64,000 nt of DNA, taken from contig JASMKH010000002.1 in the NCBI GenBank assembly GCA_030749435.1, positions 62,001 through 126,000 of the forward strand. Reading direction: 5' to 3'. Position numbers and translations under genes: made by a program. Positions 2,512 through 17,124 of this stretch are shown here, one piece after another; the stretch's first letter is position 1; each line of letters begins with the position of its first letter. The notes beneath the pieces are model-generated. The model saw nothing but the letters and a program-made list of their open reading frames with translations, was not told the DNA's origin and searched no databases. Origin of the DNA: Phycisphaerales bacterium (GTDB lineage Bacteria > Planctomycetota > Phycisphaerae > Phycisphaerales > SM1A02).

Positions 2512-4314
2512 TCACTCAGGCCTGGGTTGGTAGTTGCTGGTCGTGGCCGCACGCCGGAGTTCCGCAAGAACGCGGTCCTGCTGCGCCTTGAAGTCGGCGG
2601 CCACGTACTGTCGCTTCCACAACGCGTGGAGCACGCCGACGACTTTGCTGTAGGAGAGCCCGAGACCAGCGGCGGGATCTTCAATGGTCGGGGCGTGCCC
2701 AAGCAGCAGAATCATCTCTCGGAGTACCGGCGCGACCTGGTTGACCTCCGGAGGACCGCCCGGATCGACGCGATGAAAGACTTCGATCCGCGCACCATCC
2801 TTGGACTCCCGCATCAGCAGGCTGTTCTCCCACATTCCCAGGGTCATCGGCCGCTCGATCGGGACATCCTCACCAAGCACGACGATTCGGGGCGCTCGAA
2901 CCTGCGTGACGTAAATCGCGGGATAGGCCGAGGGGATCTGGTGCAGTTCAAACCGGCCGGGAACGAGGTGCCGATGCACGATGGGCGATCGGAGCTGCTC
3001 GAGGGCCTCGTAGGCGCGGAGGCGAACCTCGACGCTCTCGTCGTTGAGCGCGGATCTGAGCACGTCTTCGGTGCGGGGATCTGAGGGCAGTTTCGCCAGG
3101 AGCGTGGTTGCTTCCAGCCGTTCTGCGAGTGTGCCCCCTTTCAGCATGCGACGAAGCGATTCGGCGGCGATGGCGTCACCGAGTTCCGCCCCCGCGCGGA
3201 GGGCTGCCAGTCGCGGCAGTGCCTCGGGATAGTCGTACATCTTGCGGACCATCGGGAGCGCCTGCGGTCCCATCGCAACCCACCGCCAATAGGCGGATGC
3301 CGCCTCGGAGGGGTCCCGCTGGAGCGATCTCCGAATCGTGTTGGCGACTCGGTCCGTATCGACCTGGCGAAGCGTGATGTGCCGCACGATGTGCACGAAG
3401 TCGTTGGGCTTCTCCCGCATTGAGGGCGGCACCGTCAACTCGATGGCCGCATCGTTGACGGCGTGCGCGGTTGGTCTGGCCTGGCCGCGTTCCAGCGGAA
3501 ATCTCCGGTTGATGGCATCCTGAACGATGCGGACTCGCGAGTGGCTTGGATTGATCATCCGCAGTTTCAGCGGCATGTCCTCAAGCACCTGCCCGCCGTT
3601 GAGGATGCGTCCATGGAGCGTATTGATGTCGCCCGCGGAGACGTTTTCGTTCTCGAGGAACGGATTGAGAAAGATGGGGCCAGCGGCCTGCCCGAGGATC
3701 CGCGCCTGCCTGTCGCCGGTGAGCAGCGGCCCAGGGCTCAGGTCGGTCGTGTAGAGTCGTCCTCCCTCCAGACTGGTCGTGCCGGTGCGTGGGTCTGCAT
3801 GCACGTGAACGTCGAACGTCGTTCCGGGGAGCATTTCGGGCAGTCGGCCCGATGCGCTTGGAGGTGTTCGGCGACGTCCGACCGCACCCGGGGGCACGAC
3901 GCCTTCAACGATGACAATTGCCGTGTTCTGAGAATCGAGCATCGACTCGGGGGAGATGTCCCCGAAGCCGATCCGCTCGCTCCCGATGCCCTGCCGGGCC
4001 ATCAACTGAAGCATGTGGGCGCGGACGTTGGGGGGGACGTCGCGGGATCCGGTGCCCTCAAGCCCGACGACCAGCCCGTAGCCACGGATTCGGACCGGCC
4101 TGTAGGTGGGACTGGTGCTGTCGTCCCATCCCAGGATGACCGTCTCTGCGCCGACGGTTCCCCGCATGATGCTGGCCGTCTCCATGCCGTCGAGTTCCCT
4201 GATGGTCGACGAGGCCTGGGGCCGCGGTCGGGCCTTCTCCACGGAACTGCAGCCTGCGGCGAGGATCGCCGCAAGCGTGACGTGGATCGGATTGAGACAT
4301 CGAGTGATCGCCAT
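2512..4314 (-). CDS. FlgI-like (flagellar P-ring family) lipoprotein with HEAT-type repeats
   Basis: A 600-residue predicted lipoprotein: the start at 4314 gives a short hydrophobic signal ending in a lipobox (ILAAGC, Cys22). Residues about 75-290 resemble the flagellar P-ring protein FlgI: GYGLVVGLEGTG, then NTAIVIVEGVVPPGA, then FDVHVHADPRTGTTSLEGG. FlgI is normally about 360 residues and cleaved by signal peptidase I. Here the homology is followed by a helical region of HEAT-like repeats (about 330-480, with phrases such as DESVEVRLRAYEALEQL), then a beta-rich tail. No other flagellar gene is nearby, so a role as the true P-ring is doubtful; an envelope ring or scaffold role is only a guess. 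The frame stays open upstream to 4437, but that extension has no signal peptide and is unlikely to be translated. Confidence 0.8.
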   Translation of the reverse strand: MAITRCLNPIHVTLAAILAAGCSSVEKARPRPQASSTIRELDGMETASIMRGTVGAETVILGWDDSTSPTYRPVRIRGYGLVVGLEGTGSRDVPPNVRAHMLQLMARQGIGSERIGFGDISPESMLDSQNTAIVIVEGVVPPGAVGRRRTPPSASGRLPEMLPGTTFDVHVHADPRTGTTSLEGGRLYTTDLSPGPLLTGDRQARILGQAAGPIFLNPFLENENVSAGDINTLHGRILNGGQVLEDMPLKLRMINPSHSRVRIVQDAINRRFPLERGQARPTAHAVNDAAIELTVPPSMREKPNDFVHIVRHITLRQVDTDRVANTIRRSLQRDPSEAASAYWRWVAMGPQALPMVRKMYDYPEALPRLAALRAGAELGDAIAAESLRRMLKGGTLAERLEATTLLAKLPSDPRTEDVLRSALNDESVEVRLRAYEALEQLRSPIVHRHLVPGRFELHQIPSAYPAIYVTQVRAPRIVVLGEDVPIERPMTLGMWENSLLMRESKDGARIEVFHRVDPGGPPEVNQVAPVLREMILLLGHAPTIEDPAAGLGLSYSKVVGVLHALWKRQYVAADFKAQQDRVLAELRRAATTSNYQPRPE

Positions 4315-4343
4315 GAGGGTTTGCCCGGCGAGGGGAACTTGTG

Positions 4344-4349
4344 AGTCTA
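4344..4349 (-). promoter_or_regulatory. -10 box TAGACT upstream of the FlgI-like gene
   Basis: TAGACT on the minus strand, 29 bases before the ATG at 4314. It matches the TANNNT pattern seen at other starts in this window and is identical to the rpmH -10 box. No convincing -35 element and no Shine-Dalgarno sequence in the leader. Confidence 0.4.
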
Positions 4350-4497
4350 GCAGGCCTCCCCTGCGGGTCCCGATTCGGGGTATGCCCGAGGTCGCCGGGA
4401 GGGGAGGGGTCAACCCGCCGCTGTGATGATCCCCCATGAGGACTCGACCCCGGTCTGGCCGGAATCGTCAGGCCCATGCCCGATGCCATTGCGACAA

Positions 4498-4989: not shown

Positions 4990-7900
4990 TTATCGGGTTC
5001 GGATCTTCGCGGCCGCGGCCCTCAGCCAGTCCTCATCGGGCATCGCCCATGGTCGGAACTTCTCGATGACGCCGGTTTCTTCCCGGTGGATGATCGCTCG
5101 GCCCGGCCCCAGATCGGCTGCCGCGGTCGAATCAATCAACTGGCCCGAGTCATTGGCGCCCATCTGAAAGAGCACCTTGATGTCGAACTCCCGCTGGCTG
5201 GCCCTGCTCAGACCTCGATTGACGTTGTTGAGGCCGTCGTACCAGAGCATCGCGTGAATGCCCGCAATGGGACCCTCGCGGAGCAGCTCCGCGAATTGAC
5301 GGTCCGGCTTCGGGGTGGCATCTTCATCCATCGAGAACGCGAAGTCGTCGTCGGCCGGACGCAGCGGCGCGATTCGATTGGGCTCGAGCCCAATCACGAG
5401 GATCGTCGCCCGGTCGGCGTTCTCGCCATCGCTTCGTGAAGTGAGGATGTCGGTCAAGCGGGCCAACGACTCGGCTGCGTTGCGGGCCGTGACGCGTGTG
5501 ACTTGATGTGGGAGGTTGGACGCGAAACTCGCAAGACGCCCGGAGAACAGCGCATCGGGCGGCGAGCCATCCAGAATCCACACCATCAATCCGGGCGTGT
5601 TGGGATCGTCCGTCGGCTTCATCGACGCCGCGGCCTGAAGCAGCGCGGCGGTCAGCACGGCGTTGGCCCGCTCCGGGCTCTGGCCAACCAGCATCGCGTT
5701 GCAGCCGGTTTGCCGCCGCAACTGCATTGAAGTCTGGTCCTTGATGGCGATCGGATCCCCCAGCACCAGGTCCAGCGTCGATGCCTGATCGCCTCCTCGG
5801 CCTTCCAGCATGGCGAGGACGCCAGGGTCTGCGTGAAGGATCGAGGGGATGTTGCCCCTGAATACGAATTGGGATCGTGGTGCCTCGGTTGGATGCGATG
5901 AGGCACACTTGGCGATCTGTTCCAGTGCCTCATCTCGTTCCCGGTCATCCAGCCAGACCACCTGGAAAGGGGAGTTGCCCTCGATCTTGCCGCCCGCGTC
6001 GTTGTAGATGGCATCACCCGGGCGGCGAAGCAGTCTGGCCGCCGGATTGTCATCACTCAGAATGAGATAGGAGTCCGCTTCCGCGCACTGCAAGGCGACC
6101 CGCACGCCCATCTGCCCCAACGTGCTTCGCGCCAGCGAGAAGGCACCGTCCAGCGTCTGAGAGCCCATCAGTACGTGCATGCCGAAGGCACGCCCCTGCC
6201 GCACGAGGCGGTCGAGCAGGAGTGAGGCCTCCTGCGCGAGGGCATCGTCGTTGACGAAGAACTCCTGGAACTCGTCGACGACCAGCAGCACCCGTGGCAT
6301 CGATTCGGACGTCTGCGATCGCCACCCGGACAGGTCCTGCACGCCAGCGTCGCGAAACTGGTCGCCGCGGCGACGAAGTTCGAGGTCGAGCTTCCGCAGC
6401 ACGCTCAGGCCAAACTCGCGGTCGCTCTCGATGGCGATCACGCGTGCGTGGGGCAGTGCGTGAGCGGCGTAGGTCTGAAACTCGACGCCCTTCTTGAAGT
6501 CGACGAGGTAGAACTCCACTTCGTCGGGTGAGTACCACAACGCCAGATTGGTGATCAGCACATGCAGGAGGGTGGACTTGCCCGAGCCGGTTCGCCCGGC
6601 GATGAGGGCGTGTTGCGTCGTTCCCCGTCCGAGCCGGAGTTCCTGAAACCGGGTGGCACCACTCTGTCCGAGCGCCACCCGAAGGTCCTCGGTCGTGGAT
6701 CGAGTCCACATCTCCTCCGTCGAGGGCGCCACGAGGGAGAACGGGACCTCGACCCGGTTGGCCCCGGCGCATGCTTCTCCGTATCGGGACACAATGGTCG
6801 TGAGCATGGCGTCGGGCGGCGGCGAGTCGGGCGTGAAGTCAAAGTCGCCCAGCGGTGGGTTCACAACCGACCAACCGGTCGAGGTTGCCGCAATCCTGAC
6901 ACGGTGCTGGTCCCACTCCACCTCATTGAGCAACTCGGGAACGTCTCGGGATGGATCCTGGACGATGCAGGCGAAGACGCCGCATCGAGGACCACTCGAG
7001 AGAATGCTGGCCAGTCGCCGCGCGGCAGACTCAGTGATTCCTTCCGGGAAGTCGGTCAATACGAGAATGTGATACGGCTCGGCAATATGGCCCGCCGCCT
7101 GATTGTAGTCGTCGATGGTCTCGTACTCATTTCGAAGGTAGGTCTGAATGACCTTCTCCATGTGTTCGGTGATGTCCGAGAGTTTCTGCTCGAGGTGACG
7201 CGGCTCGGTCCAGACCCGCTCGAGGACGCCCGCGTCCTCGTGATCGGCCAGATGCATGAATCCCGCAAAGGTCTGGCCGATGCCGACCGGGTCGTACAGC
7301 GTGAGCCGGACACGGCCGGCGGGGAGGGTCGTGAGCGTCCGAGCGAGCAGCGCCTGGGCCATGGCAATGGCCTCGGGCCTGCGGGACTCCGAAGACTCGA
7401 TGACCAGTGATCCACGACCGTGGAAGTTCAGGGCGATGGGGAGCGTCAGTGTGTGCGGCGCGTGCCACTCGAATCTGGGGTCGTCTGGTGGGTTGACGCC
7501 CAACGCCTCGACATCGCACGTGATGGAGCCGATGCCGACATCGCCACTGAATGCCACAGGGGGGGCCCACGAGTCCCAATCGCCGGACCACGTCGGCCAC
7601 TGTGGGGCGAGCGCCTGTTGCAGGTGTTCAATCGTCCGGAGGTCCGAGGCGATGTCAGCTTCTGCGGCCACCCAATCGGTGGCGGCCTTCGCCCAGGCCG
7701 AATCGCAAGCTTCGGTTGCGGCGAGGCATGCTGCATCGCACTCGGACTTGATGGCAACACGTTGGCGCTTCAGTTCGGCTTCGGCCTGCTGCGTGGACTT
7801 CACCAGCGCGAGTTCGCTTGCTTCAAGTCTGGAGTCGCGTTTGGCCGTTGCGTTCTGCTGTGCCGAGTCGATGTGTGTCTGCAACTTCTCGAGCCGCCGT

Positions 7901-8871
7901 CTGGTGCGGGGGCCGGCGGCATCGAGATGCCGGTCACGCTCGTCGACGGCCGAACTGCGTTGAGCGTCGCGCTCCTTGCGAGACTCGTGTTCCTTCTGCT
8001 GGAACTGCATATCCGCCACCTGAAGTCGTCGGCGGGCGAGTTCGAACCCCTGCATGCTGAGTTGCTCGGCGCGGAGCGTCTTGGCCCTCGCCTGTGAACG
8101 CAGGGCCAGCCGCAGCCCGACGAACAGTCCGGCGCCGACGCCGCCTCCCACGGGCAGACTGACGGCGAGCGTGCCTGTGAGTGTCCCGATCGTCGCTCCT
8201 GCGGCGATGGGGAGGAGTAGACATGCGTACAGCCAGATCTGTCGGAGTAACCGGCTTCGAAGCGAGCCCTGCAGTTCGCCGAGCAGTCGGTCCGCGGCGT
8301 CCTGACGGGAGTCGATTTCCCGGTCGCTCGCCAACTCGGGCCCCTCGAAGGGACTCAACGTCACCGCATCGGTCGTGGGGAGCCGAAGTTGGGAACGCCA
8401 GAATGACGCCTTCTTCAGTACATCCCGCTGGCGGTACTCCGCCTCCGATGCCACCGCCTCCGCATGTTTGCGATCCCCGGACGTGCCCTCGATGCCCGCT
8501 TCGTAGAGCGTCTCAGCGAGCCAACTGGCCTCAGCCTCCTTGGAGGCGGCCGTCGATCTGATCGACATCGCCTCGTCGAGAATGACCTCCCGCCGTTCCT
8601 TGGCCTGCATGGCAAGGTCTCGCCGGGTCGCTTCCCATCGCTGATGGGCCTCGGCGGTGGCGGCTTCACACGCGGCCTTGGCGTTCTGGATCGTCTGACC
8701 GGCTCGCGCTTCAAGCTGGTTCCGGGCGTGCGACTCCTTCTCGCGGGCCGACGCGACGCATTGGTCCCGTTGCGTGTCCGCAGCAGCGCAGTTGGCAGCG
8801 GTTCGGTCAAACAACGTCACGATCGCCGTGATGGTGTTCTGTACCAGATCAATGAGCCGTGTGTCTGCCAT
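4990..8871 (-). CDS. Membrane-anchored FtsK/SpoIIIE-family ATPase, EccC/EssC-like
   Basis: A 1293-residue protein. In order: a Glu/Ala/Arg-rich coiled coil (about 30-155), two adjacent membrane segments (about 211-229 and 233-256), a second coiled coil (about 258-430), then three ATPase-like modules. The first (about 480-700) lacks a Walker A. The second is complete: Walker A GRTGSGKST with Lys765, and Walker B VLLVVDEFQEF with Asp866-Glu867. The third (from about 1040) has a degenerate P-loop (GQSPERAN). Tandem FtsK modules after paired N-terminal membrane helices are the plan of the type VII secretion ATPases EccC/EssC, not of the DNA translocase FtsK, which has four N-terminal helices and a gamma domain. 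The FHA domains of EssC are absent and coiled coil takes their place. Two WXG100-like proteins are encoded just upstream, supporting a secretion role. Function is inferred. Confidence 0.8.
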   Translation of the reverse strand: MADTRLIDLVQNTITAIVTLFDRTAANCAAADTQRDQCVASAREKESHARNQLEARAGQTIQNAKAACEAATAEAHQRWEATRRDLAMQAKERREVILDEAMSIRSTAASKEAEASWLAETLYEAGIEGTSGDRKHAEAVASEAEYRQRDVLKKASFWRSQLRLPTTDAVTLSPFEGPELASDREIDSRQDAADRLLGELQGSLRSRLLRQIWLYACLLLPIAAGATIGTLTGTLAVSLPVGGGVGAGLFVGLRLALRSQARAKTLRAEQLSMQGFELARRRLQVADMQFQQKEHESRKERDAQRSSAVDERDRHLDAAGPRTRRRLEKLQTHIDSAQQNATAKRDSRLEASELALVKSTQQAEAELKRQRVAIKSECDAACLAATEACDSAWAKAATDWVAAEADIASDLRTIEHLQQALAPQWPTWSGDWDSWAPPVAFSGDVGIGSITCDVEALGVNPPDDPRFEWHAPHTLTLPIALNFHGRGSLVIESSESRRPEAIAMAQALLARTLTTLPAGRVRLTLYDPVGIGQTFAGFMHLADHEDAGVLERVWTEPRHLEQKLSDITEHMEKVIQTYLRNEYETIDDYNQAAGHIAEPYHILVLTDFPEGITESAARRLASILSSGPRCGVFACIVQDPSRDVPELLNEVEWDQHRVRIAATSTGWSVVNPPLGDFDFTPDSPPPDAMLTTIVSRYGEACAGANRVEVPFSLVAPSTEEMWTRSTTEDLRVALGQSGATRFQELRLGRGTTQHALIAGRTGSGKSTLLHVLITNLALWYSPDEVEFYLVDFKKGVEFQTYAAHALPHARVIAIESDREFGLSVLRKLDLELRRRGDQFRDAGVQDLSGWRSQTSESMPRVLLVVDEFQEFFVNDDALAQEASLLLDRLVRQGRAFGMHVLMGSQTLDGAFSLARSTLGQMGVRVALQCAEADSYLILSDDNPAARLLRRPGDAIYNDAGGKIEGNSPFQVVWLDDRERDEALEQIAKCASSHPTEAPRSQFVFRGNIPSILHADPGVLAMLEGRGGDQASTLDLVLGDPIAIKDQTSMQLRRQTGCNAMLVGQSPERANAVLTAALLQAAASMKPTDDPNTPGLMVWILDGSPPDALFSGRLASFASNLPHQVTRVTARNAAESLARLTDILTSRSDGENADRATILVIGLEPNRIAPLRPADDDFAFSMDEDATPKPDRQFAELLREGPIAGIHAMLWYDGLNNVNRGLSRASQREFDIKVLFQMGANDSGQLIDSTAAADLGPGRAIIHREETGVIEKFRPWAMPDEDWLRAAAAKIRTR

Positions 8872-8905
8872 GGAGGGATGCGAATCCGTTCTGGGAGTTG
8901 GTCCG

Positions 8906-8911
8906 ATTATG
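8906..8911 (-). promoter_or_regulatory. -10 box CATAAT upstream of the FtsK-type ATPase gene
   Basis: CATAAT within TATGGCATAAT on the minus strand, 34 bases before the ATG at 8871 and inside the 66-base gap after the small WxD gene's stop (the gap itself is 8872-8937). It may be an internal promoter of the operon. No clear -35 box. Confidence 0.35.
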
Positions 8912-8937
8912 CCATACCTTGGCCTGGCGGCGGAGGC

Positions 8938-9150
8938 TCAGCCGCAGTCACGCTCCACCTGATGGATAATCTCGTTCATGGTCTCAATGGCGGCGTCGGC
9001 GCTGCGTTGCGACTGCTGAAGTGGCACCAGGAACCGCTCTGCAAGCAGGCGGTGCTGCGCGTCGCTCCACTGGTGGCCGGCCTGCTCCCAGGCGAGCATC
9101 AGCGCGCGGCAGCCCTCGCGGAGCCTGGCTCGTTCCGAGTTGAGATTCAC
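8938..9150 (-). CDS. Small WXG100-like helical protein (70 residues, WxD motif)
   Basis: Starts with GTG at 9150, overlapping the preceding stop by four bases (GTGA). The protein is all-helical in character and carries W28-x-D30-x2-H33-x4-E38-x-F40. The same residues at the same spacing occur in the 90-residue protein encoded at 9735-10007. In WXG100 proteins a W-x-G turn joins two helices; here the third position is Asp. At 70 residues it is shorter than the usual 95-100. Likely a secreted substrate or partner of the FtsK-type ATPase encoded next; this is inference from size, motif and neighbourhood. Confidence 0.6.
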   Translation of the reverse strand: MNLNSERARLREGCRALMLAWEQAGHQWSDAQHRLLAERFLVPLQQSQRSADAAIETMNEIIHQVERDCG

Positions 9151-9725
9151 GGCTCCACCTCCTCGGTGGCACCGTCCGTCCCGTGCCGCCCACGCGAGTT
9201 CAGTTGCTGCTCGTCCTCCGAAGGGGTTGTCTCGGGCATGGGCGGGGCAACCTCGAGGTACCCCTCCAGATGCCGCACCAGTTCGGCGAGCCATCCGGCC
9301 GCTCTGGGAAGGTCTGCCTCGACGGCGGTTGACAGTGGCCGCAGCCCGCCGCGGAAGAGCGTGACCTGGCGGTCAAGCTCCCTGGACCAGCGTGCGATCA
9401 ACTTCAGTTTCTCGGTGGCCTCGTCGGCCGCCGCCTTCGCCTTGCGGATGGCCCGCTGCTGATCAACGAAGCTTCTCGGGTCGGCGTCCGGACGGGAGAT
9501 CTTCGCCCGTTCCAGATCACTGCGAGCCGACGCCAACCGCTGATCTCGCTTTCGTTTCTGCCCTCGCCAGTGCTGCAGCTGCGGCCCCTGGACCCAGGCA
9601 AGCAGTCGCGTGGTGCGATTGACGCACTCGTCGATGGTGCGGGCCATCGACTCGCTTGCTTCGACGATTCTGCCGCGAAGCTCCGCGATCGCATCGATAC
9701 TTCGGACGTTAGCCTGGTCACGCAT
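9147..9725 (-). CDS. Coiled-coil protein of the WXG/FtsK locus
   Basis: 192 residues, start ATG at 9725, nine bases after the stop of the 90-residue WxD protein gene. Mostly helical and highly charged with long heptad-like stretches (about 10-140), no signal peptide and no membrane segment; the last 40 residues are acidic, Pro/Thr-rich and probably disordered. It contains W-x-G-like and W-x-R sites (LQHWRGQKRKRDQ), but no motif I can assign. Placement between two WXG100-like genes suggests a chaperone, adaptor or substrate for the same machine. I do not recognise the family. Confidence 0.6.
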   Translation of the reverse strand: MRDQANVRSIDAIAELRGRIVEASESMARTIDECVNRTTRLLAWVQGPQLQHWRGQKRKRDQRLASARSDLERAKISRPDADPRSFVDQQRAIRKAKAAADEATEKLKLIARWSRELDRQVTLFRGGLRPLSTAVEADLPRAAGWLAELVRHLEGYLEVAPPMPETTPSEDEQQLNSRGRHGTDGATEEVEP

Positions 9726-9734
9726 CCAGATGAT

Positions 9735-10007
9735 CTACCGCTGATTGAGGTAGTCGTCCGCCCGCTGCGCCTTTCGCAGCAGGAACGGCACATGTTCGGA
9801 GACGTCGCTTCGGAACCGTCCGAGCGTTCGCATGGTGTGTTCGAATTCCTCGGAGAACTTCTGGTGCTCCTGATCCCGCCAACTCTGGCCAAGCGTCCTG
9901 TGCCGTGACATGAGCGCATTCATCTGCTCATGCATGGTGTCGGTAAATCGTTTCAGTTCGCTCGCGAAACGCCGTACTTCGTCCGGATCGATGATCGCCT
10001 TGGCCAT
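9735..10007 (-). CDS. WXG100-like protein (90 residues, WxD motif)
   Basis: First gene of the locus. ATG at 10007 is preceded by AAGGAG with a 10-base spacer. The 90-residue protein fits the WXG100 (ESAT-6/EsxA) size class: helix about 8-37, turn with W43-x-D45, helix about 46-85, no signal peptide. The motif W43-x-D45-x2-H48-x4-E53-x-F55 matches the spacing in the 70-residue neighbour exactly. WXG100 proteins form helical-hairpin dimers and leave the cell through EccC/EssC ATPases, and such an ATPase is encoded three genes downstream. Asp instead of Gly at the turn occurs in some divergent members of the family. Family assignment is probable, secretion is inferred. Confidence 0.7.
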   Translation of the reverse strand: MAKAIIDPDEVRRFASELKRFTDTMHEQMNALMSRHRTLGQSWRDQEHQKFSEEFEHTMRTLGRFRSDVSEHVPFLLRKAQRADDYLNQR

Positions 10008-10097: not shown

Positions 10098-10610
10098 TCA
10101 CTCCGCTGTGTCCGCCCGTGCTGCCGGATCCTGCTGCTCGGTCGGACCAAAGAGCCGATCCCACGAACCCTCGACACCGCCTTCAACAGTTCCTCTGACG
10201 GAGACGTATCTGGCGCCGGCGATGATCAGTCGTCCCTCGATGTGGGCGTCCGGATGAATGTCGAGATTGCGACCGAGAAAGGAGACGTCGCCGGAGTAGC
10301 GGTCCATGAGCACCGCGTCACCACCGAGGAGCGCGATGTCGGCGGTCGCTCCGCTCAGCGTGATGTCGCTGGCGAAAATGAGCGTGGGCGTTGTGATCGC
10401 GGTCTCCTCGGTGATCGTGGATCCATCCAATTGCGCCCACCCCTGATCGCGAAAGCGGGCCTCATACTCGGTGACGAAGGCGTTGAGCCGCCACGCGGAG
10501 ACTGCGACCAGGACCGCGCCGGTCATGAGAATGCCTGCAAGCGCGATGCAGCCGATGTGATTCCGCCAGGTTGGCAGGACGTCGGTTCGGCTTCCTGAGG
10601 CGTCGGTCAT
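10098..10610 (-). CDS. Membrane-anchored protein with bactofilin-like beta repeats, last gene of respiratory operon
   Basis: 170 residues; ATG at 10610 overlaps the preceding stop (ATGA at 10607-10610). One N-terminal membrane anchor (about residues 21-42), then an extracytoplasmic region whose second half alternates short strands and turns (LTLSGATADIALLGGDA and VSFLGRNLDIHP), like the beta-helix of bactofilins or polymer-forming proteins. No haem, copper or thiol motif is present. It closes the respiratory operon, so it may help assemble or stabilise the complex, but I cannot assign a function. Confidence 0.6.
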   Translation of the reverse strand: MTDASGSRTDVLPTWRNHIGCIALAGILMTGAVLVAVSAWRLNAFVTEYEARFRDQGWAQLDGSTITEETAITTPTLIFASDITLSGATADIALLGGDAVLMDRYSGDVSFLGRNLDIHPDAHIEGRLIIAGARYVSVRGTVEGGVEGSWDRLFGPTEQQDPAARADTAE

Positions 10611-11113
10611 GATGTGCTGGCAGATCTTCCTGCGTGGAGTCGGCGGTTGACACCGTACAACACCAGCGCCGCTGGAACCGGAAGCAGCCACGGCCATGCC
10701 GATGCAAACGGTGGAAGTGCCTCGGCGGCGGAGAAGGACCAGGCCACGCTCGCCTCGGTCGTTTCCGAGGCGACATCCGTGTGGACCTCCCATGCGCCGG
10801 CGGACGGGAGGATGAACTTCGCGGCATGGAGCAGGCGGTTGTCGGCCTGGGGTCGAGTTGCGGCGGTCTTGACCCTCGTGCCGCTGTCCACGTGCAACAG
10901 TGTGAGTTCGACGCTGACTTCAAGTTCGGGCGCGCCGCTGTGGGCGTCCTGAACCATGACGGCAATGTCGATTGGCCCCTGACGCACAGGCGTCGGATCG
11001 GTCATGACCGTCACCTTCCACGGTCCGCAGGTCTCGCTGAGGCGTACCAGGCCACTGTCCGCCCGGGCGGCGGCCGCTGCAGCGATGAGCATGATGACCG
11101 CCGAGCGTTTCAT
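10607..11113 (-). CDS. FixH/YtkA-like periplasmic protein with C-terminal anchor
   Basis: 168 residues with a cleavable-looking signal (about 1-19), an immunoglobulin-like beta domain (about 25-125) with the pattern W-K-V-T-V-M-x-D-P-x-P-x2-G found in YtkA/FixH proteins, and one C-terminal membrane helix (about 134-152). FixH-type proteins take part in copper handling and oxidase maturation. It overlaps the CtaG fusion gene by four bases (ATGA) and the next gene likewise, so all three are probably translationally coupled. No metal-binding Cys or Met cluster is obvious, so its exact role is open. Confidence 0.65.
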   Translation of the reverse strand: MKRSAVIMLIAAAAAARADSGLVRLSETCGPWKVTVMTDPTPVRQGPIDIAVMVQDAHSGAPELEVSVELTLLHVDSGTRVKTAATRPQADNRLLHAAKFILPSAGAWEVHTDVASETTEASVAWSFSAAEALPPFASAWPWLLPVPAALVLYGVNRRLHAGRSASTS

Positions 11114-13437
11114 GGGAGAATCGTTCCCCTCATCTGCATCGGCTGGAGCGTGATCCAGACACCGATCGCAAAGAGCAGGATGCCGGGAAGCGAGAGCACC
11201 GCCGTCGCGAGAAGCGGACGTCGCTGCGTGGCGGCCCTGGCCAGCCGGTGCGCGGCGATGAGCGTCAGGACGAGCCCCGCATCAAGAAGCAGCAGTTCCA
11301 GCGGCAGCAGCCACGTCGGAACATTGAGGCAGCATGCCAGAACCCACGCGGGCGGTCCGAAGTCGAGCCCCACGTCGTTGGCGAGGCGTTGCGAGACCGG
11401 GACGATTGTGCCCAGACTCGTCAGAAAGTGAAACAGCATATGGACGACCCACATCGCGAACCCGATCGGCACGAGGGTGAAGGCGAGGCGGCAGGTTGTC
11501 TGCAGTACGCCTTCGCGGAGCCGGCAGATCGCAGCGGTCGCCACCACGATGAGCGGAAGCAGCAGCACCGGCAAGGCGACGGCGACCGCGACCAGCACCA
11601 GCGTGGCGGCGAGCACGGGGGTCGCCGCGCCGATCGAGGCGCTGAAGCGGTCTTCGAGTTCGAGAACGGGCCCGACCATGCCCAGCGCATTGGCGAAGGC
11701 CCCGAATGTCAGCACCGCCGCGAGCGCCGCCAGATCAGGTCGCTTTGAGAGGCGGCCGATTCCACCACGCCACGGGTTGCTTGAGACGTCCCGGAGCAGA
11801 GGCCGCGGGAGAACGCCGACATTATCGTGTGGACATGCCCGCGCGCAGTCCATACACCAGGTGCAGTCGATGTTGCCCTGTTTGGTCGGCACGTAGAGGT
11901 CCAGTTCGCAGCCCCGGCCGCCGGGACCACCGCGAATGCAGTCCCGTGTTCGGCAGGTCCCGCATACCGAGCGGTCGATGACCGCGACGTCGCGAGGCGA
12001 GGCCATCGATTCGATGAAGTGAAACTGCCCGATCGGGCAGACCCATCGGCAGAACGCGGCGCCACGGAAGAGGGCGTCAATGGTGAACGCCGCAGCGAAG
12101 TACCCGATGACGACCCATGCGGTCCACCAGGTCGAGTCCCAGAGGCTGAACGCCTCGTAGGCCCACAGGTAGAGCAGCAGCAGGCTCACGGCGAGCCATT
12201 TGCTTCGCAGGTGACGCGGCCATCGCCGAACGGGTCGAAAGAGCCACTTGCCCAGTTCCCGGGGAATCATGAACGGGCATGCCCAGCAGAACGCATTGCC
12301 TGCGACGAGCAGCGCGATGACGACGAAGCCTCGCCAGTGCGTCCATGGCAGGACGCCCGCCAGATTCATCGGGCTCAGCGTCGGGCCAAGCAGTCCGTCA
12401 ACCACGATGGCCGCCGCGATGGCGAGCAGCGTCCACTGCACGGTCCGCCGAACGCGGAGCGACTTCAATGCCGATCCGAGCATCGGGAGGCGAAGCAGAT
12501 CCGATCGTCGCCGCGAGGGCTTCGGCGTCCACCCGCTGCCGAGTGTTCCACCCTGGATTGGCAGGGAGATCTCGACGGGAGGTCTGTGGAGGCCATGACC
12601 GGCCAGTGCCGGAACTGCCGAGAGCCTCGGCTGCAACAGGCGTTTGATGATGAGTCCGACGGGGAGCAGGAACGCGGCCGATCCGGCGACCCACATGACG
12701 CCGCCCGCCGCAGCCTGATCGTGCAGGGTCGTGATGCCCAGAAGCTCAGGGGCTGCCGCGTAGGCGCCGTAGATCGGGGTCCCGAGAAACACGAAAATGG
12801 CTGAGAACAGGGTGTTCTGAAGGTCCGCGGCCAGGAGGTAGGGAAGCATGGCCCAACGCGGCCAGACCGACCTGCTCGGCCAGGGCTGCACGACCGGCCA
12901 CCAGAACAGGAGCGCGGTCGTGATGAACGTGAAGTGCTCCACCTCGTGCCAGAAACTGCTGCGAAGCGCGCGTTCGTAGAACGCGGGGTAGTGCCATACC
13001 CAGGTCGCGACAATAAAGAGGGCAAGCGTGACGACAGGATGCGTCACGACCCGGATGATGCTGCGGAATCCCGGTGATGCCAGGAACGGGCCGAGCCAGT
13101 CGGTACGAATGCTCGCTGGAAGGCCGCGAAGCATGGGGATGCCCGGCAGTGCCAGCAGAATGAGTGGTGGTCCGACCATCATCAGCATGACGTGCTGCAG
13201 CATGTGGACCTGTAGCAGCATCGATGCGATCGGGTCGATCGGGGAGGCAATCGCCAGCCAGCATGTGGCGACTCCGGCAATGAGTGAGGCGAGCCGCCAC
13301 CGCGAGAAACGTCGCGGCATCGTCCGGTGCAGGCCACGCCATCCTCGCCAGTAGATCAGCACCGCAATGAGCGAAATCGCCAGTGGCCAGGGCTCGATGG
13401 TCCAGGACGTCAGGATGGCGCGGGCCACATCGGACAT
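11110..13437 (-). CDS. CtaG-type oxidase assembly protein fused to a NapH/CcoG-like polyferredoxin
   Basis: 775 residues in two recognisable parts. Residues 1-270 form a multi-helix CtaG-like (caa3 assembly) domain with LLQVHMLQHVML and a W-H-E-V-E-H segment whose histidines could bind copper. Residues about 330-620 form a polyferredoxin-type membrane module: CWACP (384-388), CRWVCP (463-468), a Cys cluster at 492, 495, 500 and 510, and a 4Fe-4S signature C525-x2-C528-x2-C531-x3-C535-P. Further membrane helices run to the end. CtaG proteins deliver copper to the oxidase; NapH/CcoG-type proteins move electrons or reduce copper. The fusion suggests copper delivery and reduction in one polypeptide. 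Starts at 13437, 54 bases after the cytochrome b stop. Confidence 0.85.
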   Translation of the reverse strand: MSDVARAILTSWTIEPWPLAISLIAVLIYWRGWRGLHRTMPRRFSRWRLASLIAGVATCWLAIASPIDPIASMLLQVHMLQHVMLMMVGPPLILLALPGIPMLRGLPASIRTDWLGPFLASPGFRSIIRVVTHPVVTLALFIVATWVWHYPAFYERALRSSFWHEVEHFTFITTALLFWWPVVQPWPSRSVWPRWAMLPYLLAADLQNTLFSAIFVFLGTPIYGAYAAAPELLGITTLHDQAAAGGVMWVAGSAAFLLPVGLIIKRLLQPRLSAVPALAGHGLHRPPVEISLPIQGGTLGSGWTPKPSRRRSDLLRLPMLGSALKSLRVRRTVQWTLLAIAAAIVVDGLLGPTLSPMNLAGVLPWTHWRGFVVIALLVAGNAFCWACPFMIPRELGKWLFRPVRRWPRHLRSKWLAVSLLLLYLWAYEAFSLWDSTWWTAWVVIGYFAAAFTIDALFRGAAFCRWVCPIGQFHFIESMASPRDVAVIDRSVCGTCRTRDCIRGGPGGRGCELDLYVPTKQGNIDCTWCMDCARACPHDNVGVLPRPLLRDVSSNPWRGGIGRLSKRPDLAALAAVLTFGAFANALGMVGPVLELEDRFSASIGAATPVLAATLVLVAVAVALPVLLLPLIVVATAAICRLREGVLQTTCRLAFTLVPIGFAMWVVHMLFHFLTSLGTIVPVSQRLANDVGLDFGPPAWVLACCLNVPTWLLPLELLLLDAGLVLTLIAAHRLARAATQRRPLLATAVLSLPGILLFAIGVWITLQPMQMRGTILP

Positions 13438-13491
13438 GGCCTCAGGCTATCAGCAGGTCTGCGTGGCGCGAGCCGAAGTGATGACGGGGCA

Positions 13492-14973
13492 TCAGGAGTC
13501 GGGAAGGATCGGTGGGACCGGGTCCTGCGTCGGACGGGGATTCATCGAGTACCCCGCTCTGGGCTCGTGTTCCCAGGCGTTGGTCAGCGTGAGCAGGAAC
13601 GCAGTGAGCGCCGTGGTCTCCTCGGGCGAGAGGTGCTTGCCGTAGGCCGGCATGTTGCCGCCGCCCTGCAGGACCTGCCTGATCAACTGATCGCCGTTGA
13701 GTCGGGATGCAACGCCATCGAGCGCCGGGCCGCGTTCGCCTCCTCTGCCATCGAGCATGTGGCAGTTGCGGCACTGCTTGTTCTGCACAACGATCGCGCC
13801 CTGCAGTTCAAGTGGCGATCTTCCCTTGACATACTGGGGCGGGGTTGGGATGCCGCTCCACGCATCCATGACCGGCGACCAGGGTGCGCGGTACCCCAGA
13901 TAGGTGAGCGTACTGAGGGACAGCAGCAGCAGAATGACAGCAACCACCGAAACAGGCCTTCTCCTCCAGTGCTTCTCGCCACCTCCTGAGAGGAATGGGA
14001 GCAGGACGAGTACGGCGACTGCCAGAATGGGGGCGCCCAGAATCAGGAACGTCTCCATGTAGGGCGGCAGCAGCGCGAGCACGGCAAACAGGGACTGGAA
14101 GTAGAAGTCTGGCCGGGGCGCCGTCTGCACGAACGCCGGGTTGGGTTCGCCCGCGGGGCCTGCCGGTCCGAACATCATCGCGCAGAAGAACAGGAGGCCC
14201 AAGGTCAGCCCACAGGCGATCATGTCCCGGCCCGCCGCATTGGGGAAGAAGGGCATGCCTCGCTTCTCGACCAGTTCGTGATACTTCTCTTCGTATGTCG
14301 CCTTCTCGACGAGCACGCCCGGCGTCGGCTTCTCGTTGATGCCGCACTTGATGACCAGCAGCAGGTGCAGGCCGATTAGGCCAATGAGTGCGGCCGGAAT
14401 CATGAAGACGTGCAGCGTGAAAAACCGGCTCAGCGTCTGCCCACCGATGATCGGCCCGCCAAGCACGAAGTGGACGAGACCCGGCCCGATCCACGGGACG
14501 CGGCCGGCCATCGACATGCCGACGCCGAGTCCCCAGTATGAATCCTGATCCCATCGCAGGACCTGTCCTGTGAACGCCATGCCGAGCGTGCAGAAGAACA
14601 GAAGCACACCGCAGATCCACGTGAGTTCTCTCGGGTACTTGAAGGCACCGAAGAGGAAGACCTGAATCATGTGGATGGTCATCGCGGCGACCATCAGGTG
14701 CGAGCCCCAGACATGAAGGGCTCGCAGGAACCATCCCATCTCGGCCTGGAATGTGATGTACTCAAGCGACTCGAACGCTTCGCCGGCGGAGGGGACGTAG
14801 AGCAGCGAGAGTGAGATGCCGGTGACGATCTGGCAGATGAACAGCACGAGCGTCATCGACCCGAACACGTACCACCACTTGGCACTCCGGGGGACGGGAT
14901 GCGTGACGCTCGGCCCCATCACCTCCGCGAGATGCGTGCGAGATTCAAGCCATTTGAGAAGGGGAATGTTCAT
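13492..14973 (-). CDS. Cytochrome b of the bc complex with C-terminal cytochrome c domain
   Basis: 493 residues. The full-length cytochrome b part (1-365) binds two haems b through His87/His101 (13 residues between) and His188/His203 (14 between, the b6f-like spacing). The quinol-site motif is PDFY (288-291) in place of PEWY. The C-terminal domain (from about 385) is a cytochrome c with CRNCH (401-405). The start at 14973 follows the Rieske stop by four bases. Oxidises quinol in the membrane and, with the Rieske protein, passes electrons to c-type haems. The fused haem c could pass electrons straight on to the oxidase encoded in the same operon. Confidence 0.93.
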   Translation of the reverse strand: MNIPLLKWLESRTHLAEVMGPSVTHPVPRSAKWWYVFGSMTLVLFICQIVTGISLSLLYVPSAGEAFESLEYITFQAEMGWFLRALHVWGSHLMVAAMTIHMIQVFLFGAFKYPRELTWICGVLLFFCTLGMAFTGQVLRWDQDSYWGLGVGMSMAGRVPWIGPGLVHFVLGGPIIGGQTLSRFFTLHVFMIPAALIGLIGLHLLLVIKCGINEKPTPGVLVEKATYEEKYHELVEKRGMPFFPNAAGRDMIACGLTLGLLFFCAMMFGPAGPAGEPNPAFVQTAPRPDFYFQSLFAVLALLPPYMETFLILGAPILAVAVLVLLPFLSGGGEKHWRRRPVSVVAVILLLLSLSTLTYLGYRAPWSPVMDAWSGIPTPPQYVKGRSPLELQGAIVVQNKQCRNCHMLDGRGGERGPALDGVASRLNGDQLIRQVLQGGGNMPAYGKHLSPEETTALTAFLLTLTNAWEHEPRAGYSMNPRPTQDPVPPILPDS

Positions 14974-14977
14974 GGAG

Positions 14978-15532
14978 TCAGGCCGTCTGCTGCAGTGTCG
15001 GAAGTCGCCCGGCCTTGATCTGCAGCGATCCATTCTTGATGCGTGTCTGGTAGGTGTAGAGTCCGCGGGGCGGCGGCCCCGCGGCGTGTGAGCCGTCGGC
15101 GTAATACACGCCGCCGTGACAGGGGCACATGAAGAGGTTGCTCTCCGGGAACCACCTGACAGGGCAGCCCAGATGCGTGCAGTTGATGGCGAACACGGTG
15201 AACGCGCCCGAGTCCTCGCGGCGAACCCAGCATGGGGTTTCGGCCACGTACCCATCCCAAGGTGTCCGGACTGGATTGACGTACGTCGCCAGCCGCGTCT
15301 GCCCCTTGGGGAAACGGGCCGGATCGCCCAGATCGGTCCACTTCTGCCAGCCGGTAGATCGCCACGGGCTGAAGAGGTAGCCGAGAATCGGAATGGCGAT
15401 CAGCAGCGACGCAATGGCGGTGAGGGCGCCCCCAAGCCAGAACAGGAACCCTCGCCGCGAAGGCTCGGGGCCGGAGGCATCGCCCATCATCTCGGGGTCG
15501 GGGGCACTTCGATAGTCGAACTTCTCGCCCAT
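14978..15532 (-). CDS. Rieske iron-sulphur protein of the bc complex
   Basis: 184 residues. N-terminal twin-arginine signal-anchor (SRRGFL at 25-30, followed by a hydrophobic helix to about 54), so it is probably exported folded by Tat. The 2Fe-2S cluster ligands are Cys118 and His120 (in CTHLGC) and Cys136 and His139 (in CPCHGG); Cys123 and Cys138 form the usual disulphide. The last Gly of the second box replaces the more common Ser, which tends to go with a lower cluster potential in this family. It is encoded directly upstream of cytochrome b and three bases after the dihaem cytochrome gene. Confidence 0.95.
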   Translation of the reverse strand: MGEKFDYRSAPDPEMMGDASGPEPSRRGFLFWLGGALTAIASLLIAIPILGYLFSPWRSTGWQKWTDLGDPARFPKGQTRLATYVNPVRTPWDGYVAETPCWVRREDSGAFTVFAINCTHLGCPVRWFPESNLFMCPCHGGVYYADGSHAAGPPPRGLYTYQTRIKNGSLQIKAGRLPTLQQTA

Positions 15533-15535
15533 GGC

Positions 15536-16297
15536 TCAGGTGCCTCCTCGGAAGCCGGGGTCGTTATTGCCGGAAGCCGGGTAGGGCTGCCCGGGGAACT
15601 CCACGCGGTGGGATGTGATCCACGCCAGCAGATCGGCCACCTGACCCACGGTCAGGGGCGGAAGGCCGTCCCGCTGCGGTACGGGCTTGCCGTTGAGGTT
15701 GCCGTACCAGTCCGGCATGCCGACGTCGGGTCGGCCGCACACGATGGTGGCCCGAATCATCTGGTCGCTCGCCAGGGCGAGGAAGGATGGGTCGATCGGA
15801 CTGCCGGCCATGGCGCCCACGCCGTTCTCACCGTGGCACGGGCTGCAGTAGGAGTTGAACACCACGAGTCCTCGGTCGGCATTGCCCGGCGACTGCCTCC
15901 AGTTGATGATGGCCGGGGACGCGGCGGCGTAGCTGGGGGGAGTGCCGCCCCAGTTCGTTCGCATGCCCGCCACCACCGCGTCGATCTGCTCATCGGTCAT
16001 CCATCCACCGTTCGCGGTCGAATGGGGGGGCATGAGCGTTCCGTTGATGCCATCTGCAATCGTCGTTCGGAGCCACTGGTCGGTCACGAGGGATTGGTAC
16101 AGCGGGTCATTCAGTGGCCTGGCAGGACCCCACGTGCCGTTTTCGCCGTGGCAACCTTGACAGTTGGTGGCCCACAGCGGGGCGAAGCCGTGCACGGTTG
16201 TCGGGTTGCCCCGATCAACCTCCGGCGTCGTCGGGCGGCCGGGCATCCAGTCGCAGCCGGCGGTGGCGAGCAGCAGCAGGGCGATCAGGCGATTCAT
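15536..16297 (-). CDS. Dihaem cytochrome c lipoprotein
   Basis: 253 residues. Lipoprotein signal with Cys15 (ATAGC), then two cytochrome c domains with CQGCH (46-50) and CSPCH (151-155). Each domain is followed by a candidate axial Met (GTLMPPHS and VGMPDWY). Start ATG at 16297 overlaps the preceding stop by four bases. Such membrane-tethered dihaem cytochromes link a bc complex to an oxidase, replacing cytochrome c1 or soluble cytochrome c. Position between subunits of both complexes supports that role. Confidence 0.9.
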   Translation of the reverse strand: MNRLIALLLLATAGCDWMPGRPTTPEVDRGNPTTVHGFAPLWATNCQGCHGENGTWGPARPLNDPLYQSLVTDQWLRTTIADGINGTLMPPHSTANGGWMTDEQIDAVVAGMRTNWGGTPPSYAAASPAIINWRQSPGNADRGLVVFNSYCSPCHGENGVGAMAGSPIDPSFLALASDQMIRATIVCGRPDVGMPDWYGNLNGKPVPQRDGLPPLTVGQVADLLAWITSHRVEFPGQPYPASGNNDPGFRGGT

Positions 16298-17124
16298 GAG
16301 TTGCCTCCCGTGCGCTGCGTCTCGAGGCCGATTCGATCCACGTAATGCCAGTTCTGCATGGTGCCGATCTTCTCGCTGCGAATGATCCACCAGCCGGTCG
16401 TGACCCCATACACCACTTGCGAGGCGATAAACCAGATCCACTCGACGTGGTCACCCAACGCGGGATTGACAACCGATACAGCGGCCCATGTCAGCCCGGA
16501 CCACATGAGCGGCACGATGATCGCCGCGAATACCAGCGGCGCTCTGGGAACCAGTGGAAGGACGACGCCATAGAGGAGCCCGACGGTGATGGCCATGACT
16601 GCCTGAATGATGATGCCCACAATGAGTCCCTCGGTGCTGAATGCGGCGAGTTCTTCCATGGACAGATCGGCGACGCCCGAGCGGAGCGTTCCGGCGAGCA
16701 GGTTGACCGCATACCAGAGGGAGCCGTGGGCAATGAGCCCCCAGAGCGATGCGAAGATCGCCATGACGACCCCACCGATGGCGCCCCCAATCATGCCGTC
16801 GCGATACCGGTGAATCTCCATCGGAATGCGGGCGCGATGGCTTGAGTCACCGAGCAGGTGGTCCACCGATCCGGGGCGAGGCACGATTGGGGTCGGTTTC
16901 TCCCGAGCCGGGGGTGCGACCATCTCCAGCGAATCCGGGTTGGCGTTTCTGAACCAGTCGACGGCGCCCGCCAGAAGCGCGGTCAGTCCGACGACGGCGA
17001 CGATCCAGTTCGTGACGATGCCTGCGGCCATCAGCGTGAATCCGAAGGCGCAGATCATCGGTCCAGCGGTCGGCTGCGGCAATTCGATGCCGTGCGTCTT
17101 CTCGTTGGGGGGGATGCTGTTCAT
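16294..17124 (-). CDS. Multi-helix membrane protein of the respiratory operon
   Basis: 276 residues, ATG at 17124 overlapping the subunit III stop (ATGA). The N-terminal part (about 20-62) has two membrane helices and resembles the small subunit IV sometimes found after oxidase subunit III. After a Pro/charged linker (about 70-105) come five or so more helices, starting with GMIGGAIGGVVMAIFASLWGL (about 110-130, Gly-zipper-like). No haem- or metal-binding motif is evident. It sits between oxidase and bc genes, so it may hold the two complexes together. I do not recognise a family for the second part. Confidence 0.7.
   Translation of the reverse strand: MNSIPPNEKTHGIELPQPTAGPMICAFGFTLMAAGIVTNWIVAVVGLTALLAGAVDWFRNANPDSLEMVAPPAREKPTPIVPRPGSVDHLLGDSSHRARIPMEIHRYRDGMIGGAIGGVVMAIFASLWGLIAHGSLWYAVNLLAGTLRSGVADLSMEELAAFSTEGLIVGIIIQAVMAITVGLLYGVVLPLVPRAPLVFAAIIVPLMWSGLTWAAVSVVNPALGDHVEWIWFIASQVVYGVTTGWWIIRSEKIGTMQNWHYVDRIGLETQRTGGNS

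What the first reader, a model, noticed from the sequence alone, without database searches (positions are those of the whole stretch)
4990..10007. Compact WXG100/FtsK locus resembling a minimal type VII secretion module
In one operon: two tiny proteins, a coiled-coil protein and a 1293-residue ATPase with two membrane helices and three FtsK-like modules, only the middle one with intact Walker A and B. This is the EccC/EssC plan, but without FHA domains, without EccB/EccD/EsaA-like membrane partners and in a lineage with an outer membrane. It may be a reduced or diverged secretion machine in which one polypeptide takes over several parts. WXG100-like genes have been noticed outside Gram-positive bacteria, but how they export across two membranes is unknown.
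Basis: partly seen in the sequence, partly recalled or inferred. Interest (0 to 1): 0.7.

Follow-up and report, generated by a model that had tools for sequence, protein, structure and literature searches.

The report
Type VII-like protein pump in planctomycetes
Four neighbouring genes encode a membrane-anchored motor related to the type VII secretion motor plus three small helical partner proteins; the kind was noted in 2012, but here it keeps all four parts together in a two-membraned bacterial phylum, even in genomes where the genes have scattered, so whether it exports proteins can now be tested.

Summary
On the minus strand lie WXGA (90 aa, a true WXG100 protein), COIL (192 aa helical hairpin), WXGB (70 aa, divergent WXG100-like) and a 1293-aa ATPase. 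The ATPase has two membrane helices and three modules: module 1 matches the EccC stalk+DUF region, module 2 is the only intact FtsK motor, module 3 matches EccC/EssC ATPase3, which binds EsxB in mycobacteria. In a tree it joins neither DNA translocases nor EccC but forms a clade with plasmid proteins from Helicobacter, Caballeronia, Rhodococcus and Deinococcus, some beside toxin and immunity genes. In 294 Planctomycetota genomes ATPase and WXGA co-occur almost perfectly (38 both, 1 and 2 alone). All four proteins persist even where the genes lie at three or four unlinked places, so they probably work together. No EssB is found, and each genome has one WXG100 protein. Most likely this is a reduced T7SS-like exporter of the WXGA/COIL/WXGB set; export is unproven. 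The kind is not new: Zhang et al. 2012 noted solo WXG plus a three-FtsK ATPase with only the middle active, planctomycetes included. New here are the anchored, mostly toxin-free, co-retained four-part form and the evidence that its parts belong together.

The parts
9735..10007 (-). WXGA, 90-aa WXG100 protein with W-R-D in the turn (SWRDQEHQKF)
   Evidence: Pfam WXG100 29.3 bits over cut-off; profile hits HP0062 3fx7 E 2.9e-12 and EsxB/EsxA structures; W43, D45, F51, Y86 invariant in 26 sequences
9147..9725 (-). COIL, 192-aa helical hairpin with a disordered tail; occupies the gene position that carries nuclease effectors in Helicobacter/Caballeronia-type relatives
   Evidence: AlphaFold2 pLDDT 89, helices 7-77 and 83-159; family members beside the ATPase in most loci; domain fusions in relatives
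8938..9150 (-). WXGB, 70-aa divergent WXG100-like protein, GTG start overlapping the end of COIL
   Evidence: W28 and D30 invariant in 26 sequences; iterated WXGA profile finds it; profile vs PDB ranks WXG100 structures 4lws, HP0062 and EsxA among the top, but only at E 0.03-0.4; no Pfam hit
4990..8871 (-). ATPase, 1293 aa: coiled coil 1-208, membrane hairpin about 211-257, long coil 260-421, DUF-like module about 444-704, active FtsK motor about 718-1000, ATPase3-like module about 1002-1275

Best explanation
A reduced type VII-like protein export system of the inner membrane. The ATPase is anchored by its membrane hairpin and probably forms a hexamer. Its DUF-like module and coils form the neck, the ATPase3-like module docks the conserved C-terminal tail of the WXGA-containing helical complex (WXGA, WXGB and COIL, arranged like an LXG effector with its two Lap partners), and the single active FtsK motor drives the folded helical bundle across the inner membrane. 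Shown here: anatomy, predicted fold, clade, conserved residues, and co-retention of the four parts. Inferred: hexamer, docking, complex formation, translocation. Unknown: crossing of the outer membrane and the role of the cargo. Because the planctomycete COIL usually carries no toxin domain and no immunity gene follows, an envelope or housekeeping role is likelier than killing.
For: WXGA is a WXG100 protein. The motor's best NCBIfam match is EccCa, 108 bits vs 22 for FtsK. Foldseek over the whole model ranks EccC 4nh0 first (E 1.5e-28), ahead of FtsK (3e-11). Module 1 aligns to the stalk+DUF of ESX-5/ESX-3 EccC and YukB (Z about 14-16) and module 3 to ATPase3 domains (Z about 18-21); ATPase3 binds the EsxB tail (PMC6954902). 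The WXGA C-terminus EYLxQR is strongly conserved. Planctomycete motors examined keep one or two hydrophobic segments at the same place. ATPase and WXGA co-occur 38/1/2/253 in 294 genomes, Fisher p 3e-44, not corrected for shared ancestry. COIL and WXGB also persist when unlinked. Homologous operons in Helicobacter and Caballeronia put a coil protein with an effector-like end (Helicobacter: WHH nuclease, then a SUKH immunity gene) between the WXG100 gene and the small gene before the motor. LXG+Lap1+Lap2 precedent PMC9600955.
Against: No export has been shown. No EssB in 15 genomes. No toxin or other WXG100 cargo over cut-off. Motors of the Caballeronia and Deinococcus relatives lack a clear membrane hairpin, and PMC11090510 takes the lack of membrane helices in such motors to mean a different mechanism. 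The single motor domain by itself aligns best to FtsK (Z 26). Only one active ATPase domain. No recurrent neighbour gene.
Confidence: 0.6

Rival explanations
1. A membrane-tethered or cytosolic ATPase complex that does not export: WXGA, WXGB and COIL are subunits or adaptors of a remodelling, stress or defence machine, as suggested by relatives next to TerY-P, TerD, CARF or Hsp70 genes.
For: Relatives lie beside TerD/DUF475, VWA-PP2C-kinase-CARF and Hsp70/GrpE genes; CoCoNuT authors note that the coiled coils may join defence complexes; no toxin or second WXG100 cargo in planctomycetes.
Against: No Ter, VWA, CARF or restriction partner recurs in planctomycete neighbourhoods; the planctomycete motor has a membrane hairpin, an EccC-like DUF neck and an ATPase3-like module; PADLOC has no specific system for it.
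Confidence: 0.27
2. A DNA translocase (FtsK/SpoIIIE or coupling-protein like) with helical accessory proteins.
For: The middle module alone resembles the FtsK motor most (Z 26); the window's own 84%-complete genome shows no other FtsK.
Against: Of 15 genomes searched, 13 have a separate true FtsK, E 1e-57 to 1e-66; the tree keeps the clade apart from FtsK/SpoIIIE; WXG100 co-occurrence; NCBIfam FtsK score only 22 bits.
Confidence: 0.06
3. A decayed remnant of a mobile toxin or defence cassette that lost its nuclease and immunity genes.
For: COIL lacks the nuclease found in the homologous position in Helicobacter; 2012 authors called such modules mobile; patchy presence in 39 of 294 genomes.
Against: Catalytic and many other residues are invariant in 53 aligned motors; all four proteins are kept although the genes are scattered.
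Confidence: 0.05

Closest known systems
Solo-WXG with YueA-like three-FtsK ATPase ('mobile versions of T7SS', Zhang et al. 2012, PMC3482391 Table 1 footnote 6; H. pylori HP0062/HP0066 in PMC4978471; EssC-like extension of type III-A CoCoNuTs in PMC11090510)
   Same: Three FtsK-like modules with only the middle active, N-terminal coiled coil, WXG100 protein(s), a coiled-coil gene, same gene order; planctomycetes are named in 2012.
   Different: Here a membrane hairpin in the motor, usually no effector domain, no immunity gene, no TerY/CoCoNuT partners, chromosomal and in many genomes scattered rather than mobile.
T7SSa motor EccC (ESX) and T7SSb motor EssC/YukBA
   Same: Two-pass anchor, stalk, DUF-like module, active FtsK motor and an ATPase3-like end domain; works with WXG100 proteins.
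   Different: One ATPase domain fewer, extra coiled coils around the anchor, below the EccC/EssC model cut-offs, separate clade from EccC, no EssB found, no FHA (FHA is also absent from EccC).
LXG effector with Lap1/Lap2 partners (PMC9600955)
   Same: A larger helical protein encoded with two small WXG100-like proteins.
   Different: COIL is not shown to be an LXG domain and usually carries no toxin here.
FtsK/SpoIIIE DNA translocases
   Same: RecA-type FtsK motor.
   Different: Different clade, different membrane part, partnered with WXG100.

Membership tests
T7SSa/T7SSb proper | WXG100 (PF06013) protein encoded | tested here: met
   WXGA 29.3 bits vs cut-off 27.3; HP0062/EsxB/EsxA structural relatives
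T7SSa/T7SSb proper | Motor is an EccC or EssC orthologue (NCBIfam cut-offs 346-778 bits) | tested here: not met
   Best 108.5 bits to EccCa, 84 to EssC, 79 to EccCb; separate clade from EccC in the tree (no EssC row in that tree)
T7SSa/T7SSb proper | EccC-like domain order: anchor, stalk, DUF, tandem FtsK modules | tested here: met
   one ATPase domain fewer than EccC
T7SSb | EssB/YukC | tested here: not met
   0 of 15 genomes; control B. subtilis rings
T7SSb | YukD/EsaB | tested here: inconclusive
   4 of 15 genomes; not in the window's genome and does not follow the motor's distribution
T7SSa | EccB | tested here: inconclusive
   0 of 15 genomes but no positive control rang
T7SS | ATPase-dependent export of WXG100 proteins | not testable with these tools
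   needs experiment
Solo-WXG / three-FtsK YueA-like kind | Three modules, only the middle with intact Walker motifs | tested here: met
   81 of 81 keep the motifs in module 2; modules 1 and 3 lack the Walker lysine
Solo-WXG / three-FtsK YueA-like kind | Shares ancestry and gene order with Helicobacter and Caballeronia modules | tested here: met
   Clade support 98/99; order WXG100, coil gene, extra gene, small gene, motor
Solo-WXG / three-FtsK YueA-like kind | Mobile, toxin/immunity or TerY-P linked (in the published descriptions) | tested here: not met
   Unrelated neighbours; scattered, mostly single-copy chromosomal genes
FtsK/SpoIIIE translocase | Groups with DNA translocases | tested here: not met
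   true FtsK present separately in 13 of 15 genomes

The most novel reading that the evidence does not exclude
A complete WXG100 exporter in a diderm phylum built from only four proteins, with one polypeptide replacing the usual membrane scaffold, serving an envelope or housekeeping role rather than toxin delivery and inherited vertically for long enough that its genes have scattered.
Probability: 0.3. Interest if true: 0.8.

Novelty: new variant of a known kind. Interest (0 to 1): 0.52.

Why it matters
Whether WXG100/FtsK modules of two-membraned bacteria export anything has been open since they were noted. The planctomycete set is compact and almost always one copy each, is defined here by near-perfect co-retention, and occurs in cultured species, so deletion and localisation can settle it. 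If it exports, it shows the smallest machinery a type VII motor needs.

Tried and rejected
Conserved neighbours as functional clue: 57 adjacent proteins, no family in more than 4 of them. PADLOC: only generic FtsK/HerA-type matches. COIL fold search: generic helical hairpins, uninformative. Extra WXG100 cargo: each planctomycete genome searched has a single protein over the cut-off, WXGA. COIL or WXGB next to unlinked WXGA: none in most such loci, neighbours are unrelated genes such as sulfatase or ThuA. EccB absence cannot be claimed, no control rang. The 23-genome co-occurrence set was chosen because its genomes held one of the genes, so the independent test is the 294-genome draw.

Full report
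What is there. Four genes lie head to tail on the minus strand: WXGA 9735-10007, COIL 9147-9725, WXGB 8938-9150 and the ATPase 4990-8871. WXGB begins with GTG and overlaps the end of COIL by four bases, which suggests translational coupling (sequence). The finding's coordinates are right.

Small proteins. WXGA passes the Pfam WXG100 cut-off. A 26-sequence profile finds HP0062 of Helicobacter pylori first (3fx7, E 2.9e-12), then EsxB and EsxA structures. HP0062 is a dimeric helical hairpin with W-R-D in the turn and a neighbouring FtsK gene (PMC3397514); WXGA has the same W-R-D. WXGB is more diverged: no Pfam hit, but W28 and D30 are invariant, the iterated WXGA profile reaches it, and WXG100 structures are among its top though insignificant PDB matches. 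COIL is predicted with good confidence as two long helices (7-77 and 83-159) with a disordered tail. Its fold matches are generic.

The motor. Sequence searches put it nearest EccC. The predicted structure (residues 200-1293, mean pLDDT 82) matches EccC 4nh0 best over its whole length. In parts, module 1 matches the stalk and DUF region of ESX-5/ESX-3 EccC and of YukB, module 2 is a full FtsK motor, and module 3 matches ATPase3 domains. In EccCb1, ATPase3 binds the C-terminal tail of EsxB (PMC6954902), so module 3 is the expected docking site for WXGA, whose C-terminus EYLxQR is strongly conserved. Docking is inference. A hydrophobic hairpin near residues 211-257 of the window protein is kept in planctomycete motors (one or two peaks at the hydropathy threshold used) but was not found in the Caballeronia, Deinococcus or divergent G107 motors. 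In G107 a following 983-aa gene has coils and two hydrophobic stretches, as if the anchor were a separate protein there (inference).

Relatives. A tblastn search of plasmids found motors similar far beyond the P-loop in Rhodococcus, Caballeronia and Deinococcus, and a relative in Helicobacter. In Caballeronia and Helicobacter the order is WXG100, coil gene, extra gene, small gene, motor, which matches the window apart from the extra gene. The coil gene of Helicobacter ends in a WHH/colicin-type nuclease and is followed by a SUKH immunity gene. The Caballeronia set sits beside a VWA, PP2C and kinase triad, and one Rhodococcus set beside TerD genes. So the COIL position is an effector position elsewhere. 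In a Phycisphaerae locus COIL carries a possible Imm33-like domain (E 7e-5, below the Pfam cut-off). Most planctomycete COIL proteins have only a low-complexity tail.

Tree. The planctomycete motors, G107 and the five plasmid motors form one clade (98/99), apart from FtsK/SpoIIIE (100/98) and from EccC. Some joins involve long branches and no EssC row was available, so the position relative to EccC is open, but grouping with DNA translocases is not supported.

Do the four belong together? In one draw of 294 Planctomycetota genomes the motor was found in 39 and WXGA strongly in 40; 38 have both, one has only the motor, two have only WXGA, and those three are incomplete assemblies (72-87%). Fisher p is 3e-44, not corrected for shared ancestry. 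In 23 genomes chosen because they hold one of the genes, WXGA is in 23, COIL in 21 and a genuine WXGB in 21. The genes are often far apart: in G105, a single contig, the motor is at 0.24 Mb, WXGA 0.71, WXGB 1.94 and COIL 2.66 Mb; in G024 they lie at three places. Retention without linkage is good evidence that the products act together. Two Singulisphaera genomes have two sets of motor, COIL and WXGB but one WXGA.

What is missing. EssB was absent from 15 genomes with a working control. EccB was not seen, but no control rang. YukD appears in four genomes without following the motor. Each planctomycete genome searched has one WXG100 protein over cut-off. Neighbouring genes are unrelated.

Known or new. 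Zhang et al. [quoted passage not shown] PMC4978471 and PMC11090510 describe the same kind in H. pylori and in CoCoNuT loci. I found no paper on the planctomycete operon itself in the library. New here: the anchored, mostly toxin-free, scattered but co-retained form, the assignment of modules to EccC domains, and COIL/WXGB as constant parts.

Mechanism. The best reading is a small inner-membrane exporter of a WXGA/COIL/WXGB complex, in analogy to LXG with Lap1 and Lap2 (PMC9600955). Anatomy and partnership are shown; transport is inferred; passage of the outer membrane is unknown.

Noticed in passing
window 2512-4437 (-): FlgI-like (flagellar P-ring) domain joined to HEAT repeats in a probable lipoprotein; the gene after the motor in L003 and L007 is of similar size and place, and FlgI appears in two neighbours scanned.
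   Followed up: partly
window 11110-16441 (-): Respiratory cluster: CtaG-type protein with a ferredoxin-like region, cytochrome b with a cytochrome c domain, further cytochrome c-like protein.
   Followed up: no
window 10098-10793 (-): Unassigned membrane protein just upstream of WXGA; a same-strand gene stands at that place in L003 and L007; no Pfam match.
   Followed up: no
L170:5611-11569: Divergent motor without membrane hairpin beside WXGA, followed by a 983-aa coiled-coil protein with two hydrophobic stretches and HEAT repeats: anchor possibly encoded separately.
   Followed up: partly
L035:8314-9348: COIL with a C-terminal Imm33-like domain (E 7e-5, below cut-off); similarly long COIL genes in L023, L027, L028, L030, L032.
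   Followed up: partly
G294 C1:2165659, G299 C3:102772, G295 C1:1770757, G056 C1:145443: YukD-like ubiquitin-fold genes away from the motor.
   Followed up: no
L115:11250-12068: Rhodococcus relative carries, near the motor, a helical protein with an unassigned C-terminal domain that may be an effector.
   Followed up: no
phage record MT836827.1:3567-5339: Human-gut phage record with a motor homologue over query residues 477-1067.
   Followed up: no
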